Source: a virus. Taken from it: DNA of 23,886 nt. Below the pieces are notes generated by a model. That model saw only the letters and a program-made list of their open reading frames with translations. It made no database searches and was not told the origin of the DNA. The position numbers and the translations under genes were made by a program. The stretch spans positions 1-23,886 of the IMG/VR virus record IMGVR_UViG_3300036944_000395; one strand, 5' to 3'. How positions within the stretch are numbered: the first letter of the stretch is position 1; the number at the start of each line of letters is the position of its first letter. Positions 8,371-23,886 of this stretch are shown in pieces.

Positions 8371-8526
8371 TTGGACTACATCGACTACATGCTGTGGAAA
8401 GCCGTAGTTCTTTTTGTCTTGGCTGTTGCTTGGGGCATCTTCTGCGGCTGGAACGGCCTAGAGCTCAACGGTCGGCCACGGCAACCGGAGCGCCGCGCAA
8501 CAACAGACTCTGAAGCTCAGGACTAG
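8371..8526 (+). CDS. Small single-pass membrane protein on the opposite strand
   Basis: A 51-aa protein if started at TTG 8371, which has AGGGG at 8361-8365 five nt upstream; the frame is open from GTG 8329 but without a site. The sequence is (M)DYIDYMLWKAVVLFVLAVAW, then a Gly-Trp turn and a polar tail rich in Arg, Glu and Pro. One strong membrane segment is clear. A small hairpin (CCCGC/GCGGG, 8344-8358) stands just before the ribosome site. The last 62 bp overlap the end of the ejection gene on the other strand. It may be a small holin-like or exclusion protein. Similar 'M-L-W-K' small membrane proteins occur in related phages as far as I recall. Confidence 0.5.
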   Translation: MDYIDYMLWKAVVLFVLAVAWGIFCGWNGLELNGRPRQPERRATTDSEAQD

Positions 8527-18276: not shown

Positions 18277-20025
18277 TCAGGCCGGCACGATCCGCATAGA
18301 CGGATTGCGCAGTCGCACTGTCGCGTTGCCGGAGCCCATCGTGATGAACGCTTGCCAGCGCACAGCCGTCGCGCCGGTTGGCACCGTCCACGGCACAGCG
18401 GGCGGCGGGGTGACACCCGCTACACCAACGTCGGGCAGTTGCATTGAGTCCAGGGCCAGCATGGAGTAACCAATAGGCGCAGTGGTTGTCACCGGCTGCA
18501 AGCGAGCATCAATGCCGCGCAGCGCGCCGCCAGAGCCGGCCACGTAAGCCCACTCAACCGTGGCTTCCATCGGCTGACCGGCGACGGGAACTGTTGAGCC
18601 GACTCCTAAGCTGTGTTCGAGTCGGAAGGTCGCCCCAGCGCTGGCCCCGGTAATGGCGTACTCAAGCCAGTCATTGCCGCCGTCTGTCGCTGCAACTTTC
18701 TGCACGACGCAGCCTGTCACCGTGCCGCTGAACAGGCCCGCCGTGTAGCCGTCCGGTACACCGCCACCGCCTGCCGACACGTTCGTGCCGGCCACCGCAC
18801 CGCCTGTGCCGGAATAGCCCACGTTGCCAGCCAAGTTCCCGTTTGGGTTGTTGGTGGCGTCATAGGCCAGCATGGGCGATTGCGTCACCATCGTGGCCGA
18901 CAGCGGGCTGACGAAGGGTTGCAGTTGAAGCGCCGCGAACTCAGCACCCGGGCCAGCCGGATGAACGTTGTCGGCCTGCAGGCGGTTCGCTTTGGGCGCA
19001 GTGGTGCTGGTCGGGTCAACCGTTGCCCCCCACACGTTCACAAACGTGATGCCGTACCGTTCGCAGATGGCAGGAACAACCGAAGTGTTGAAGGCATTCC
19101 ACGCATTCCGCTGCGCCGCTGTGCTCCACGCATAGGCCGGGATGGAGCAAACAATCGCGCCAACGCTGACTAGGCTGGGAGCCGCAGCCAGAAAGTCGGC
19201 CTCAATCTGCGCCACAGTACGCGCGCCGATTACGTCATTGGTTCCAATCTGCACCACCACCAATCCGGGGTTGGCCGGCAGACCCATCATCAGGTCTGAC
19301 AGATGCCGGATTGATGCGCCAGGCGCGCAGATGTTGGTTTGATACAGACGCCCGTAGCTCAGGAACTCCAGCCACTCAGGCACGCCGCGCGTCAGTGAAG
19401 CATTCGACGGGCTACCGGTGTAGGTCACGCTGGTAGATGTGCTCGCCAACGTCGCCATGACGTCGCGGAAGAAGGAGCCCTCGATCCACAACCCGTTCGC
19501 GGACGCGATGCGGAACCGCTGCGAGCGGGTCATTGGCACCCACGGGCCGGCGGTGTCGCTCGGTGCTGTGTAGCGCAGCGACTGCAGCGGCAGACTCCAT
19601 TCAATCGTGCCCGTGCCTGCCGTGTTGGTGTAGAGGCTGGCGAGGAACAGGTTCACGCCGTTACTGAAGATCAGCCCGGTCGGCACAAGCGCGCCATACC
19701 GCACGCCCATGTAGTTGATGCTGTCGCCCACGAAGGTGGCGCGGGGGTAGCCGATCCCAGCCCTTAACACCAGTGCTTGCAAAGACGTATCCATCCCAGC
19801 CGGATCGGTGTACGTCGCCGCGCCGCCTTCTGCCAGCATGCTGATCGTTGATCCTGCGCTCAAGGTCACGCTTGTTGTGCTGTAAATCTCCATCGGCGTG
19901 ACGGGATCGCCGGCAGCGTTGCGGCCATTCAGCGACACCTTGCCGCCAGTGCCCGGCGTTACGGTGATCGTGCTGGAAACGGGGACGTAAACGGTGGCAG
20001 GGGTGCCGGCAACAAGTGAGCCCAT
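18277..20025 (-). CDS. SGNH/GDSL hydrolase, tail-associated esterase
   Basis: A 582-aa protein. An N-terminal beta part (residues 1-85, virion attachment probable) is followed by an SGNH hydrolase: block I FVGDSI (Ser102), block II around APGAS (Gly236), block III QIGTND (Asn263) and block V DNVHP (Asp352, His355). The whole catalytic set is visible. The C-terminal third (about 400-582) is beta-rich with Gly repeats and a final carbohydrate-binding-like domain. Such tail proteins remove acetyl groups from capsule or O-antigen during adsorption. GAGG lies 6 nt before the ATG, which overlaps the stop of the adaptor gene. It sits among the head-neck genes rather than with the fibre. Confidence 0.85.
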   Translation of the reverse strand: MGSLVAGTPATVYVPVSSTITVTPGTGGKVSLNGRNAAGDPVTPMEIYSTTSVTLSAGSTISMLAEGGAATYTDPAGMDTSLQALVLRAGIGYPRATFVGDSINYMGVRYGALVPTGLIFSNGVNLFLASLYTNTAGTGTIEWSLPLQSLRYTAPSDTAGPWVPMTRSQRFRIASANGLWIEGSFFRDVMATLASTSTSVTYTGSPSNASLTRGVPEWLEFLSYGRLYQTNICAPGASIRHLSDLMMGLPANPGLVVVQIGTNDVIGARTVAQIEADFLAAAPSLVSVGAIVCSIPAYAWSTAAQRNAWNAFNTSVVPAICERYGITFVNVWGATVDPTSTTAPKANRLQADNVHPAGPGAEFAALQLQPFVSPLSATMVTQSPMLAYDATNNPNGNLAGNVGYSGTGGAVAGTNVSAGGGGVPDGYTAGLFSGTVTGCVVQKVAATDGGNDWLEYAITGASAGATFRLEHSLGVGSTVPVAGQPMEATVEWAYVAGSGGALRGIDARLQPVTTTAPIGYSMLALDSMQLPDVGVAGVTPPPAVPWTVPTGATAVRWQAFITMGSGNATVRLRNPSMRIVPA

Positions 20026-20672
20026 CAGTAACCTCGCGTGATGTTGAAGCGACCTTCGCGGGAGATCTGCGCCAGCTCAGTCATTAACGGCGCAGATGCG
20101 CGGTTGTCGTTCTCGCTGTCCGAGACATCCTTCAGCGCGGCTTGATACCGGCCCTCGAAAAGCTGCGCGGCTTGCGCATCCTTGAGATACATCGCCGCCT
20201 CGATCAGCGAGCCCCACAGGTACAGATCGGGGGCGTTCGTCAGGACGTAATTCGTGGTGTTGGTGTCGGAGAGCGCGAATGTCTTGGTGTAGCGGAAGTC
20301 GAACGGATACGCAGATTCGGCCAGTCGGTCGAACGCAATTTCGCCGTTGTCGATGGCCCAATATTCCGGGTAGCCGGACTCGCTCTCACGCACCGGCAAT
20401 TCAGCCGGCAGCGTCTGCGTCAGCTTCTCGCGCGGGGTGTTTGCACGCAGCCACAGCGCTACGGCTGTATTGAAGCCGGTGGGCAGCGTGACGAACCGCG
20501 AGCCGGGCGTCATCGTCAGCGTCGTCTCTTCTTCCGCCGAACGCGGGAGAAGCGTGCGATTGATGCGCGCCTCTGCCAGCGTGACGAAATCGGGGATGAC
20601 CGTTGTCAGGTCGGTCCTGTTGATCCACGTCGCTATCGACGCTTTCAACTCTGCGTAAGTGGAGATTGCCAT
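20025..20672 (-). CDS. Head-tail adaptor (P22 gp4 / SU10 adaptor-like)
   Basis: A 215-aa protein starting MAISTYAELKASIATWINRT. The pattern T-Y-A-E-L ... W-x-N-R-x-D-L-x-x-x-I-P-D-F-x-x-L-A-E-A-R-I-N-R (residues 5-42) is typical of the adaptor family that binds below the portal ring in P22-like and SU10-like phages. The later part has APDLYLWGSLIEAAMYLKD and ends with helices. The first 56 codons of the longer open frame look like non-coding sequence, so the start at 20672 is chosen. It follows the coat gene and its terminator, and its stop overlaps the esterase ATG. Confidence 0.82.
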   Translation of the reverse strand: MAISTYAELKASIATWINRTDLTTVIPDFVTLAEARINRTLLPRSAEEETTLTMTPGSRFVTLPTGFNTAVALWLRANTPREKLTQTLPAELPVRESESGYPEYWAIDNGEIAFDRLAESAYPFDFRYTKTFALSDTNTTNYVLTNAPDLYLWGSLIEAAMYLKDAQAAQLFEGRYQAALKDVSDSENDNRASAPLMTELAQISREGRFNITRGY

Positions 20673-20704
20673 ATGCCCTTTTCGCTGCCTTGTGGCAATG
20701 AAAA

Positions 20705-20722
20705 GAGCCCCCGAAGGGGCTC
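20705..20722 (-). terminator. Terminator after the coat gene (UUCG loop)
   Basis: A perfect 7-bp stem GAGCCCC/GGGGCTC with, on the - strand, loop TTCG closed by C-G, the very stable UUCG tetraloop, followed by TTTT. It lies between the coat stop (20728) and the adaptor start (20672). It should reduce adaptor and tail transcripts relative to coat. Confidence 0.75.
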
Positions 20723-20727
20723 CAAGA

Positions 20728-21909
20728 TCAGTTGGACAGGATGCGGCAGGCCAGTTCCGGGCGGATGGTCTTGTAGCCGTAGAGGATGTCCAGGCGGGTC
20801 GGGAACTTGTCGTTGTTGATGTCGTACTGACGCACGACACGCATCGAGATCCCGTCCATCACCTCGCGGGCGGCGAAGTCCACGCCCTGCGGCATCACGA
20901 GGTCAGCCGTGGCAAACGCGAAGGCATCCTTGTGGAACGCCAGCGACGGCTTGTAGACCACGCTCGCGGTGCCGAGCTTCGTGATGATGGCGTTGTCAGC
21001 CGGCGAAGCGGTGACGTTCTGCCGGCCACCCGAGGTGACGATGGCAGGGCTGATCGCCAGCGAGCCGCCGCCACCCGCGTAGTCCGCAGTGATCACGAAC
21101 TGCTGCAGCGAGCCGCTGTCGGCCTTCGACTCGGCGTGAACGCGATTCACACCAGCAATGCTGATGATGTCGCCACGCTTGAAGGTCGTGATGCCGGTAT
21201 CGACCACCAGCGAGGAGCCGGTTTGAGTCGCGCCGTTCACGAGGTAGGTCGCCAGCGCGGTGCCGGTGGTCTGCGTCGGGACGAGCGTGTTCTCGTAGAA
21301 GTCGAAGCCACCAGTGCGGCCCATCATGCCTTCGCGGTACTGCTTGGCAATGGCGCTGCTGTCTTGGAACAGACCCTTCAGGCCGTCAACCAAGTCAACG
21401 TTGTCCTGAGTGTTCAGGATGACGCAGCGGTCGTTGTCCATCGGAGCCAGGTTGTCGTTCAGCACCTTGCGCGAGCCCATCACCTTGTTGAAGGTGATCG
21501 CCGAGCCGATGTTGTTGACGTTGTTGTAAACGTCGAGCGCCATCGTAAAGGCATCGGCTTCGATGTTCGCAGCCAGCACCGACATGGCCGGGTCAAGGAT
21601 GCGCTTGCTGAAGTCGTCCAGGCTCAGGGTGAGGTCCACCGAGGTGAAGTTCAGGTCAACACCCTTCTGGGTGGCAACCTGCAGCGTCGTGCTGGTTTCG
21701 GTGGTGTCCTGCGCCGACAGGGTGGCGCCGGTACGAACCGTGTACTGGTTCGGCAGGCGGATCTTCAGCGAGTCACCGATGCGCGCGCCGCTCTTGGCGA
21801 ACGAGTCGTCATAGGTGCGGTTGACGTTGCCGATGAAGTTGCACTTCTGGTGCAGAACACGCAGCGCCTCGCGGGTCACTGCGGTGGGGGTCAGAATCGT
21901 ATTGGGCAT
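20728..21909 (-). CDS. Major capsid protein (P22 coat gp5-like)
   Basis: A 393-aa protein starting MPNTILTPTAVTREALRVLH. It has the features of the P22 coat family: an N-terminal arm, FIGNVNRTYDDSFAKSGARI GDSLKIRLP (strands of the HK97 E-loop region), NRVHAESKADSGSLQQFVI in a domain that may be the I-domain insertion, and a C-terminal P-domain ending GYKTIRPELACRILSN. It makes the icosahedral shell and assembles on the scaffold coded just before it. A 38-nt leader contains a small hairpin (21921-21932) and GGAAA. A strong terminator follows. Confidence 0.92.
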   Translation of the reverse strand: MPNTILTPTAVTREALRVLHQKCNFIGNVNRTYDDSFAKSGARIGDSLKIRLPNQYTVRTGATLSAQDTTETSTTLQVATQKGVDLNFTSVDLTLSLDDFSKRILDPAMSVLAANIEADAFTMALDVYNNVNNIGSAITFNKVMGSRKVLNDNLAPMDNDRCVILNTQDNVDLVDGLKGLFQDSSAIAKQYREGMMGRTGGFDFYENTLVPTQTTGTALATYLVNGATQTGSSLVVDTGITTFKRGDIISIAGVNRVHAESKADSGSLQQFVITADYAGGGGSLAISPAIVTSGGRQNVTASPADNAIITKLGTASVVYKPSLAFHKDAFAFATADLVMPQGVDFAAREVMDGISMRVVRQYDINNDKFPTRLDILYGYKTIRPELACRILSN

Positions 21910-21919
21910 GATGTTTCCA

Positions 21920-21932
21920 GCGCCTCGCGGCG
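21920..21932 (-). repeat. Leader hairpin copy 1 (before coat gene)
   Basis: The 13-mer CGCCGCGAGGCGC on the - strand is identical to the one before the scaffold gene. It can form CGCC/GGCG with a GCGA (GNRA) loop, ending 11 nt before the coat ATG and next to its ribosome site. Confidence 0.45.
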
Positions 21933-21947
21933 TTAAGAGTTGATGAG

Positions 21948-22796
21948 TTACCTAGATCGCTTGATCTGCGCCTCGCGCCATTTCGTCCACTCCGCAATGC
22001 TCATCTTGTCCGGGTCTTTGTTCGCCACCGCCTTGGATGCGGTGATGCGAGTGACCGGCGCTTCTTGAGCCTCGGGCTTGGGTTTCGTCACGGCTTGCTT
22101 GCGCAATTGCGCCAACGTGTGCGCGTCGTTCAGGAGCTTCACAAAGAGGGGGTTTGTGACCTGCGTCACTTGCTCCTTCTGAAAGCCGTACTGAACCGCG
22201 AATTCCGTCAGCGTGGCCGCCTTTGCGGGCGACCAGTCTTTGATGTCGCGTTTAAGTACCTCAGCGCCCTCCTGCAGTTGCTTGGCAGTGACCTGCTGCT
22301 CCTGCAGAGCCTTCTGTTGGCCCTTTTCCGACACCTTGCGCGACAACTCGGCTTGCCTGTCTTGCAAGGCTCGCTGTTGCCGCTCTAACCGCCTGGCTTG
22401 CACCGGGTCGGTTTCGTCCAGCGCGTCCCAGTTGATCTGCTTGAACTGCTCAAGCTGATACGCAATGGACCGCGCTTCTGTCAGTTCCTCCAGGAATTCC
22501 CGGTGGAACTGTGCTTGCTGCTGGACTTCGGCTTTCGCCTGCTCGACTGCGGCTTTGTGGGCTGCAAGTTCCTGCGTCTTGCGGGTGTAGTCCGCTTGAC
22601 GGAGGAGCGCGTCCTTCAGCTTCTTGGGGAGCTTGTACTTCTCCCCTTCGTAGTCAACTTCTTCCTCGCCTTCGGGTTGCTGCTCTTGCAGTTCCTCGGG
22701 CGCGTCAGTGTCGATGACCTCGTGCTGCTCGGTTGTGGGTTCCGGTGCAGCGGTTGCTACCTCGGAGTCCTGCGCCGGGGCGTCAGGTTGTTCCAT
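21948..22796 (-). CDS. Scaffolding protein
   Basis: A 282-aa, very acidic then coiled-coil protein. Residues 1-50 are Glu/Asp/Gln-rich (PEELQEQQPEGEEEVDYEGE). Residues 55-180 form long coiled coils (KLKDALLRQADYTRKTQELA; QRALQDRQAELSRKVSEKGQ). The C-terminus has DKMSIAEWTKWREAQIKR, the usual coat-binding end of phage scaffolds. It guides coat assembly and leaves the procapsid. The gene lies between portal and coat as in P22-like phages, with AAGGA before the ATG and a hairpin just upstream shared with the coat gene. Confidence 0.88.
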   Translation of the reverse strand: MEQPDAPAQDSEVATAAPEPTTEQHEVIDTDAPEELQEQQPEGEEEVDYEGEKYKLPKKLKDALLRQADYTRKTQELAAHKAAVEQAKAEVQQQAQFHREFLEELTEARSIAYQLEQFKQINWDALDETDPVQARRLERQQRALQDRQAELSRKVSEKGQQKALQEQQVTAKQLQEGAEVLKRDIKDWSPAKAATLTEFAVQYGFQKEQVTQVTNPLFVKLLNDAHTLAQLRKQAVTKPKPEAQEAPVTRITASKAVANKDPDKMSIAEWTKWREAQIKRSR

Positions 22797-22810
22797 GCTT
22801 TTCCTTCGGG

Positions 22811-22823
22811 GCGCCTCGCGGCG
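22811..22823 (-). repeat. Leader hairpin copy 2 (before scaffold gene)
   Basis: The same 13-mer CGCCGCGAGGCGC as before the coat gene; CGCC/GGCG with a GCGA loop, ending 15 nt before the scaffold ATG and just before AAGGA. Possible shared translation control of scaffold and coat. Confidence 0.45.
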
Positions 22824-22880
22824 ATACCGTTGCTGGACTCAAAGGCGGATTGCCTTCGCGCTGCCAGCTATCAGCGCAAA

Positions 22881-23886
22881 CTAAAAAGCGCCCTGCGGCG
22901 CTTCTGGTGTGAGTTGCTGGGGTGCTTGCCCCATCGTAGCCTGTAGCATGCTGGCCTGCGTGTCTGCGGCCTTCGCCTGCGCCTCCGCGATGACCTTCAT
23001 ACGCTCGGTTTCGGCCTTGTACTCATCGACAGCGAGCTTTCTGGCTTCCATCGAGCGATCAGCTTTCGTCTGCTCCAGCTCCTGCCGCAGTTGGCCCACA
23101 GCCTGCTTGGCCATTTGATCCATTTGCTGCATTTGCTGCTGCATTTGCTGCATGCGCGGATCGACGCCGTTCGCCTGCGGAGGCAGCATCGCCTTGAGCC
23201 GGTCTGCGATGTCGTCGGCGCCAGGCCAATCCAAATTCTTGGCGATCAAGTCTCCGATGATCGGCGCCGATGCCGGGAACGAGCGCACGAACTCCATCAT
23301 CTGAACCGCCGACTCCTCGCGCTTCGTCGTGAAGCTCGGGCCGGCAGAGCATGTGATGTCGTACTTGCCCGCCGTCAGGTCATAGATGCGCGTCATGCCC
23401 TCTTGATGCTCTTGCTCCTCTTTCTGCTTCTCAGGGCTGGGCACAAACGGCTGATTCACCTGGATCTCGTCGTTCTCGCCGTCCTCGTGGATCACGCGAA
23501 TGATCCGGGCTTGGTTGTAAACGTGCGGGATCATGTCAACCAAGATCCGCCCAGCATGTTTGATGGCGCGCGACAGGTTGTCGATGAAGTTGAACGTAGA
23601 AACGTCGCCCTCGCGCTGGCGGGCCATGATGGCTCTGCCGCTTGTCTCGTTACTCTTGGCGCCCAAAGATGCGTCATAGATGCCCATGATCGACTTCATG
23701 TCGTCCTGAGCGTTCATCGCCTCCTGAAGGGCACCAGCGGGCGGGCCTGCGAACGCCTGGCGCTGCGGGGGCACCGGGCCGTCATACTCGATATAGGAGT
23801 GGCTGACGTTGTTGGCCGTGTTCCACTTGTCGGCGTTGCTGTTGAACGCACCGCGCGGGCCGATAAACGGCGTCTTGGGCGCCAAC
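22881..23886 (-). CDS. Portal protein (P22-like, N-terminus outside window)
   Basis: The frame runs open to the window edge; the first codon visible (TTG) is internal. The 334 residues start at LAPKTPFIGPRGAF, the conserved portal region, continue with QNLSR-like FIDNLSRAIKHAGRILVDMI, then AEERERA-type helices, and end in a long coiled coil (about 230-310, MQQQMQQMDQMAKQAVGQLR, KADRSMEARKLAVDEYKAET), like the P22 portal barrel. The last codons lie inside a terminator stem. The portal is the ring through which DNA is packaged and ejected; terminase genes should lie beyond 23886. Confidence 0.9.
   Translation of the reverse strand, partial: LAPKTPFIGPRGAFNSNADKWNTANNVSHSYIEYDGPVPPQRQAFAGPPAGALQEAMNAQDDMKSIMGIYDASLGAKSNETSGRAIMARQREGDVSTFNFIDNLSRAIKHAGRILVDMIPHVYNQARIIRVIHEDGENDEIQVNQPFVPSPEKQKEEQEHQEGMTRIYDLTAGKYDITCSAGPSFTTKREESAVQMMEFVRSFPASAPIIGDLIAKNLDWPGADDIADRLKAMLPPQANGVDPRMQQMQQQMQQMDQMAKQAVGQLRQELEQTKADRSMEARKLAVDEYKAETERMKVIAEAQAKAADTQASMLQATMGQAPQQLTPEAPQGAF
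22886..22903 (-). terminator. Terminator inside the end of the portal gene
   Basis: A 7-bp stem AAGCGCC/GGCGCTT with a 4-nt loop and a T-run (22887-22883) on the - strand. Its bases are also the last portal codons (Glu-Ala-Pro-Gln-Gly-Ala-Phe-stop). It separates portal from scaffold transcription. Confidence 0.65.

What the first reader, a model, noticed from the sequence alone, without database searches (positions are those of the whole stretch)
21910..22823. Same 13-nt hairpin before the scaffold and the coat gene
CGCCGCGAGGCGC occurs at 21920-21932 and 22811-22823, both on the - strand just before the ribosome sites of coat and scaffold, and nowhere else that I noticed. It forms a GNRA-capped stem. 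P22 scaffold is known to control its own synthesis after transcription; a shared leader hairpin could be the target of such control in this phage, linking both assembly proteins.
Basis: partly seen in the sequence, partly recalled or inferred. Interest (0 to 1): 0.5.

Follow-up and report, generated by a model that had tools for sequence, protein, structure and literature searches.

The report
Shared RNA hairpin before virion genes
The two matching hairpins in front of this phage's scaffold and coat genes are copies of an RNA leader structure that phages with unrelated capsids also place in front of their virion genes, and its shape is kept even when its letters change.

Summary
The 13-nt repeat is real: CGCCGCGAGGCGC lies at 21920-21932 and 22811-22823, minus strand, and nowhere else exactly in the window. 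Inside the window alone it is unremarkable. Comparison shows a larger RNA element: outer stem of 3-4 bp, 3x2 internal loop, inner stem of 4 bp (mostly CGNN/NNCG), GNGA tetraloop. Both window copies have all of it, with different but paired outer stems (UCU/GGA before coat, CGG/CCG before scaffold).

A covariance model trained only on phages with another coat family (SU10_MCP) ranks these two sites first (32.1 and 28.6 bits). Covariation is far above shuffled and slid controls; the outer stem, not used for selection, pairs in 82% of cells of the SU10 set. In a loop-blind scan 44 of 47 distinct contexts had GNGA loops. The element precedes capsid, scaffold, portal, decoration and tail genes of phages with unrelated capsids. 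No Rfam 15 match was found.

Most likely it sets translation or stability of virion messages. Function is inferred, not shown.

The parts
21916..21938 (-). Leader hairpin of the coat gene: outer stem UCU (21938-21936)/GGA (21918-21916), internal loop UAA/CU, inner stem CGCC/GGCG, loop GCGA (21928-21925). The 3' outer strand overlaps the likely Shine-Dalgarno bases.
   Evidence: Sequence; MFE fold shows both stems, the centroid only the inner one; 32.1 bits with model R2, which held no window row; 31.5 bits with R1, which did
22807..22829 (-). Leader hairpin of the scaffold gene: outer stem CGG (22829-22827)/CCG (22809-22807), internal loop UAU/CC, inner stem CGCC/GGCG, loop GCGA (22819-22816). 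Shine-Dalgarno AAGGA follows at 22806-22802.
   Evidence: Sequence; MFE and centroid fold show both stems; 28.6 bits with R2, 27.9 with R1
20728..21909 (-). Coat protein gene, P22 type
   Evidence: PF11651 E 6.5e-43; phrog_283
21948..22796 (-). Scaffold protein gene
   Evidence: phrog_3927 E 1.8e-26; no Pfam match
20704..20723 (-). UUCG-capped terminator-like hairpin plus T run after the coat gene, so that the coat cistron lies between a 5' GNGA hairpin and a 3' UUCG hairpin
   Evidence: the order capsid gene - UUCG hairpin - GNGA hairpin - next gene is seen in several SU10_MCP relatives

Best explanation
Each hairpin is a copy of a structured RNA leader element of phages: an outer stem of 3-4 bp, a 3x2 internal loop, an inner stem of 4 bp and a GNGA tetraloop, set between the end of one gene and the start of the next. 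Shown here by sequence comparison: the structure, its covariation, its strand, its place before virion genes, and a mostly all-or-none presence per genome. Inferred: it acts on the message and gives each virion cistron its own efficient start, by marking or protecting the 5' side and keeping the initiation region in a defined shape, probably read by a factor of the host (ribosome, ribonuclease or RNA-binding protein) rather than by the scaffold. The strong preference for GNGA over other GNRA loops suggests that the loop bases are read and not only stable.
For: 139 thinned leaders chosen by protein homology: 41 carry a GNGA hairpin with 4 Watson-Crick pairs, against 0.59 on average (most 3) in 100 shuffled sets; such a stem flanks 41 of 128 GNGA tetramers against 54 of 5988 other tetramers. 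Outer stem, not used in selection: 43 of 82 pair at offset 3/2 against 13.8 permuted; covariation score 0.609 against 0.214 shuffled and 0.135-0.195 slid on 78 rows, 0.685 against 0.219 on 56 SU10-only rows. Loop-blind scan: 44 of 47 distinct contexts GNGA. Strand: in SU10 loci 143 of 244 GNGA hairpins in leader position against 9 of 244 for the complementary loop. Genes. Phage-bound: second-class 17-mer in at least 120 viral stretches, reversed control in 3; first-class 22-mer in 0 of 399 bacterial genomes. Gene content: no protein family set the bearing genomes apart (best 5 of 10 against 1 of 10), and the scaffold family is the same with and without hairpins.
Against: No expression, probing or binding data. 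The portal (low copy number, recalled) also has it, so it is not simply a mark of high-copy proteins. The Shine-Dalgarno site lies inside the outer stem before coat genes but outside it before scaffolds, so one masking rule does not fit. Most P22-type relatives lack this class (75 of 80 loci without an R2 match; some of these contigs do not reach both leaders). The hairpin-free comparison set is nearly one clade, so the gene-content test is confounded. In P22-type loci GNAA hairpins also occur before coat (7) or scaffold (2); those before coat are terminator-like, with T runs. No named host or cultured phage with it was found (regions of 15 named records).
Confidence: 0.45

Rival explanations
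1. Operator for a trans-acting RNA-binding protein (host-encoded, or phage-encoded but too diverse for BLAST) that represses or times virion gene translation, forming one RNA regulon of assembly genes.
For: Loop strongly GNGA rather than any GNRA; recurrent 3x2 internal loop; mostly all-or-none presence per genome; similar gene sets marked in different phages.
Against: No candidate protein: the best family is in 5 of 10 hairpin-bearing and 1 of 10 hairpin-free contigs. The element occurs in phages with several unrelated capsid families.
Confidence: 0.3
2. Processing or end-protection element: late polycistronic message is cut near the hairpin, which then protects the new 5' end, while UUCG hairpins protect 3' ends.
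For: Coat lies between a 5' GNGA hairpin and a 3' UUCG hairpin in the window, and the same order is seen in several SU10_MCP relatives.
Against: No cleavage data. The pyrimidine-rich stretch upstream of coat-type hairpins is missing before many scaffold genes.
Confidence: 0.15
3. Autogenous control by the scaffold protein.
For: Hairpin before scaffold and coat in the window and in L005, L009, L011 and L019. Scaffolds of phrog_3927 accompany the element in the window, in an SU10-type and in a second-class phage.
Against: Element before tail, portal and capsid genes of phages with other heads, including, for the second class, a capsid fused to a protease domain; 10 of 10 hairpin-free relatives tested have a phrog_3927 scaffold too.
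Confidence: 0.07
4. Chance resemblance, or a DNA element such as an operator or promoter.
For: Within the window alone the repeat and fold are unremarkable.
Against: Covariation in two stems around an asymmetric internal loop; strand asymmetry; extra-base pentaloops GNGAU tolerated; independent model finds both sites; the one promoter-like match in 20500-23886 lies inside the coat gene.
Confidence: 0.03

Closest known systems
Start Associated Sequences (SAS) and extended SAS of Cluster K mycobacteriophages (PMC3203893, passages read), with similar motifs in Microbacterium phage clusters EC, EF and EG (PMC7302621, passages read)
   Same: Short element repeated at translation starts of several genes of one phage, in gene orientation, absent or nearly so from the host genomes checked, function unknown but thought tied to initiation.
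   Different: SAS is a fixed 13-bp sequence within one phage cluster, and its authors found little support for RNA pairing of the extended inverted repeats. Here the sequence varies and the pairing is kept, across phages with unrelated capsids, before virion genes.
Translational operator hairpins such as that of MS2/R17 coat protein (recalled, no call)
   Same: Small stem-loop next to a start codon with fixed loop letters and an unpaired feature in the stem.
   Different: Those serve one gene of one virus group and bind a known protein; here no binder is known and several genes share it.
Post-transcriptional autoregulation of P22 scaffold, gene 8 (recalled; two searches found no paper)
   Same: Concerns the same gene pair.
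   Different: No RNA site is recalled for it; the present element was found in only 5 of 80 loci with related P22-type coats and also in phages without P22 heads.
Intrinsic terminators between phage genes
   Same: Hairpins in the same gaps; some P22-like relatives have them at these very places.
   Different: The window's leader hairpins have no U run, carry GNGA loops and sit at the ribosome site.

Membership tests
SAS/ESAS start-associated sequences | Repeated element immediately upstream of several gene starts in one phage genome | tested here: met
   2-5 copies in 16 of 19 records searched whole and 1 in one more (records mostly chosen for having a motif), before portal, scaffold, coat, decoration and fibre-like genes
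SAS/ESAS start-associated sequences | Conserved 13-bp asymmetric sequence GGGATAGGAGCCC | tested here: not met
   The element's consensus and window copies are different; SAS consensus from passages
SAS/ESAS start-associated sequences | Inverted repeats whose changes do not generally support RNA pairing (authors' statement on ESAS) | tested here: not met
   All 8 pairs show changes on both sides; score 0.609 against 0.214 shuffled
Any Rfam 15 family | Match at or above the family's gathering score | tested here: not met
   0 matches in the window and in 18 loci of relatives; permissive search of 21880-22900 gave only mir-145, below threshold and inside the scaffold gene
Intrinsic terminator | GC-rich hairpin followed by a U run | tested here: not met
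   No terminator-like site at either window leader on the coding strand; sequence
Scaffold autogenous operator | Found only before genes of scaffold-dependent head modules | tested here: not met
   First class before tail-type genes; second class before tail sheath, tail tube, major tail and protease-fused capsid genes
Scaffold autogenous operator | Direct binding of scaffold protein to the hairpin | not testable with these tools
   needs a binding assay
boxB/nut antitermination site (features recalled) | boxA sequence upstream of every hairpin | tested here: not met
   CUCUUAAC-like stretch before many coat-type leaders; scaffold leaders often have GGGCAU, GCGGCAU and similar instead (read by eye)

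The most novel reading that the evidence does not exclude
One factor reading GNGA hairpins governs an RNA regulon of virion genes (portal, scaffold, coat, decoration, tail) in many phages with unrelated capsids. Phages gain or lose the whole set of sites together as they move between hosts that do or do not supply the factor. This would be a shared, host-dependent post-transcriptional control of particle assembly across phage families.
Probability: 0.3. Interest if true: 0.9.

Novelty: new variant of a known kind. Interest (0 to 1): 0.74.

Why it matters
Phages must make portal, scaffold, coat and tail proteins in very different amounts from shared late messages (recalled). A small covarying RNA element in front of just such genes, in phages whose capsids are otherwise unrelated, points to a common post-transcriptional solution that Rfam 15 and the papers searched here do not describe. 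It also gives the old question of how phages set scaffold and coat dosage a short, mutable target for laboratory tests.

Tried and rejected
Window-only statistics gave nothing beyond chance; comparison was needed.

Rfam, strict and permissive: no known family.

Blastn of two consensus leaders against cultured phages: only short, weak matches (E 0.6 or more; such short queries can hardly reach significance). Regions of fifteen named phage records searched with R1 gave no convincing copy: 10 loci, best 13.1 bits on the opposite strand; 5 loci, best 17.9 bits on the opposite strand inside a gene. So hosts remain unnamed.

Idea that the hairpin masks the Shine-Dalgarno site: fits coat and decoration leaders, not scaffold leaders. 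Idea of a nut/boxB site: the boxA-like stretch is missing before many scaffolds. Idea of a phage-encoded binder: no protein family separates 10 hairpin-bearing from 10 hairpin-free contigs, though the hairpin-free set is close to one clade and contigs were cut at 40 kb.

The class with CGUC-GUGA-GACG and a C.C mismatch is not found by R2 (2 matches at E up to 0.1 in 80 of its loci, 18.6 and 18.0 bits), so I treat it as a second class that may be related or convergent.

UUCG hairpins are also common in leader position in SU10 loci (77 of 178). All 77 lie downstream of the capsid start, 43 with a T run, several just upstream of a GNGA hairpin, so I take them as a separate, terminator-like feature. 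In P22-type loci the GNGA excess is smaller than in SU10 loci: 23 of 132 GNGA hairpins in leader position, four of them starts inside the coat gene, against 5 of 132 for the complementary loop and 11 of 121 GNAA.

A shorter first-class pattern does occur in a bacterial genome at about control level (2 matches against 1 reversed in the 8.3-Mb genome G001).

Papers: searches found no report of this element in their listings; search 70 led to the SAS papers. Passages read: PMC3203893, PMC4351075, PMC7302621, PMC2864571, PMC8040213. The 2017 paper on 224 candidate RNAs (recalled) is not held.

Rows dropped: one search left out stems CAGC and AAGC and starts inside the coat gene before thinning 104 sequences to 82; A1 used 78 of the 82 (four rows judged intragenic by eye); A2 used 56 of the 59 SU10 rows. 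In one search at least four of the nine 'scaffold only' cases (L513, L525, L533, L535) look spurious. The gene survey used the first 80 of 119 and the first 80 of 120 stretches, and 40 of 50 cluster representatives.

Full report
What was checked. The window is a 23.9-kb virus record. Its minus strand carries portal (cut by the window end), scaffold and P22-type coat genes. The 13-mer CGCCGCGAGGCGC occurs exactly twice, at the stated places and strand, ending 10 and 14 nt before the coat and scaffold ATGs. Within the window nothing marks it as special: seven matches with up to two mismatches against 6.25 expected, and fold z-scores near -0.5.

Relatives chosen by protein. Eighty loci encoding a related coat protein (the best 80 of 354) were read upstream of coat and, where the contig allowed, scaffold. 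Some relatives have a GNGA-capped hairpin in one or both gaps, others a terminator-like hairpin with a T run, others neither. Closest to the window's form are L005, L009, L011 and L019: coat leaders CGCC-GAGA-GGCG; scaffold leaders CGCT-GAGA-AGCG (L005), CGTT-GAGA-AACG (L009, L011) and CGTC-GCGA-GACG (L019). In these phages the sequence differs between the two genes while the pairing is kept.

Scans by pattern. In the collection of 84,980 species genomes it is in 55 stretches, near what I would expect by chance in 257 Gb (my estimate). Two scans left the loop open. TAACGCCNNNNGGCGCTGGAG, listed completely at 55 stretches, gave 44 GNGA loops in 47 distinct contexts (GCGA 20, GUGA 13, GAGA 11) and none of GNAA type.

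Statistics on leaders not chosen by hairpin. Leaders of P22 coat, P22 scaffold, SU10_MCP and HK97-type capsid genes (families) were thinned from 221 to 139. Forty-one carry a GNGA hairpin with four Watson-Crick pairs; shuffled sets average 0.59 and never exceed 3 in 100. The stem flanks 41 of 128 GNGA tetramers, 3 of 94 GNAA and 51 of 5894 others.

Structure. Eighty-two distinct leader hairpins, selected on GNGA, the inner four pairs and a following start (exclusions in Tried and rejected), were tested for an outer stem at offsets 0-5 on each side. Offset 3/2 stands out: 43 pair over three positions against 13.8 after permuting the 3' flanks, and 30 against 10.3 over four. Offset 4/3 is the same register one pair further out. 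Offset 1/1 is raised in a smaller set (22 against 9.4), partly an alternative register and partly the second class with a C.C mismatch. In the gapless alignment of 78 rows all eight pairs show changes on both sides; the covariation score is 0.609 against 0.214 shuffled and 0.135-0.195 when partners are slid; the outer helix pairs in 72.8% of cells. With 56 SU10 rows only: 0.685 against 0.219, outer helix 82.1%. The number of further pair types was not above shuffles (204 of 500 and 108 of 500 reached it). The inner stem pairs in 100% by selection, so only its variety and the outer stem count as evidence. Energy folding gives this two-stem structure as the minimum for both window leaders; for the coat leader the centroid keeps the inner stem only.

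Independent test on the window. Model R1 contains the two window rows, so its hits there (31.5 and 27.9 bits) are partly by construction. Model R2 was built from SU10 rows alone. It finds the coat leader at 32.1 and the scaffold leader at 28.6 bits; the next site is 17.9 bits on the other strand. In 540 kb around P22-type coats R2 gives 10 matches at E up to 0.1, in 5 of 80 loci. Eight are the coat and scaffold leaders of L005, L009, L011 and L019; the other two are the scaffold leader of L020 and a leader further downstream in L020. It gives none at E up to 0.1 in 392 kb of hairpin-free relatives (best 16.7 bits, E 0.11). E-values are rough, as the tool warns.

Which genes. In SU10_MCP loci 143 of 244 GNGA hairpins sit before a start (a few of these frames are intragenic by eye), against 9 of 244 for the complementary loop, 8 of 72 for the reversed one and 2 of 99 for GNAA; in P22-type loci the figures are 23 of 132, 5 of 132, 1 of 60 and 11 of 121. 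In 10 hairpin-bearing contigs R1 sites precede portal-, scaffold- and capsid-like genes, the roughly 104-aa gene after the capsid, and a few others; 35 of the 38 sites listed had an open frame downstream in my scan (gene names there by likeness to proteins searched). Among pattern hits with a usable downstream frame (85 first form, 73 second form, 25 clusters each, from the first 80 stretches of each scan), 40 cluster representatives were searched. They match major head families phrog_1328, 283, 371, 212, 617, 334 and 267, scaffold 3927, tail families 158, 290, 165, 185 and 807, portal 156, large terminase and others; some have no match. If cluster members share their representative's family, these head families make up 68 of the 158.

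Distribution. Whole-contig searches found sites in 17 of 19 records, 1-5 each (most were picked because a motif had been seen). Among 22 SU10-type records, the 11 chosen as bearing have 1-5 sites and the 11 chosen as lacking it at the capsid gene have none anywhere. Capsid and scaffold leaders agree in 53 of 63 loci. The 22-mer TAACGYCGNGAGRCGCYGRAGG is in 0 of 399 bacterial genomes drawn from the order of genome G001, the one holding the Caballeronia locus L441. No protein family marks bearing genomes (best 5 of 10 against 1 of 10), while a capsid and a scaffold-like cluster are in 10 and 10. Scaffolds of 10 hairpin-free relatives all match phrog_3927, the family of the window's scaffold.

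Interpretation. Structure, strand and position make an RNA role in expression of the following gene very likely. A role tied to the scaffold protein is unlikely, since the element serves unrelated heads and tail genes and is missing from relatives with the same scaffold family. The preference for GNGA over GNAA hints at reading of the loop. The coat cistron of the window lies between this hairpin and a UUCG terminator-like hairpin, an order seen in several SU10 relatives, which suits separate stabilisation or separate translation of each cistron. Whether the effect is positive or negative, and what reads it, is not known.

Comparison with what is known. The nearest described kind is the start-associated sequence of actinobacterial phages (PMC3203893, PMC7302621; passages), which shares place and repetition but not structure or type of conservation. 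Eight literature searches and Rfam 15 gave no description of the present element; most subscription papers are not in the library, so a report there could exist.

Noticed in passing
L304, L316, L319, L327, L329, L366: Two such hairpins in tandem before one start, the second sometimes with compensating changes (for example ATGCC-GTGA-GGCAC after CGCC-GTGA-GGCG in L316).
   Followed up: partly
L003, L007, L008, L052, L058-L060, L075, L082: Other P22-like relatives have terminator-like hairpins with T runs in the same two gaps, before scaffold and before coat.
   Followed up: partly
window 22883-22902, minus strand: The end of the portal gene itself reads as a GC-rich hairpin (AGCGCC-GCAG-GGCGCT) followed by T's that run into its stop codon; the terminator scan did not list it.
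   Followed up: no
L478 and L518 leaders, G424:298-328 and 8411-8441: Pentaloop versions with an extra base after GNGA (GNGAU), also seen in leaders of L076 and L068.
   Followed up: no
P22-like loci such as L042, L068, L081 and several of the HK97-type loci L543-L553: A second hairpin class, CGUC-GUGA-GACG, often with a C.C mismatch and a UUCCC-like stretch before the ribosome site, found before tail sheath, tail tube and capsid genes; relation to the first class open.
   Followed up: partly
L573 (PQ492659.1): Limnohabitans phage DC33 is filed under Inoviridae in its record although it is 39 kb and encodes a protein 68.7% identical to a tailed-phage major head protein of phrog_212.
   Followed up: no
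window 18277-20025, minus strand: Gene with a GDSL-type lipase/esterase domain (PF13472) among the virion genes.
   Followed up: no
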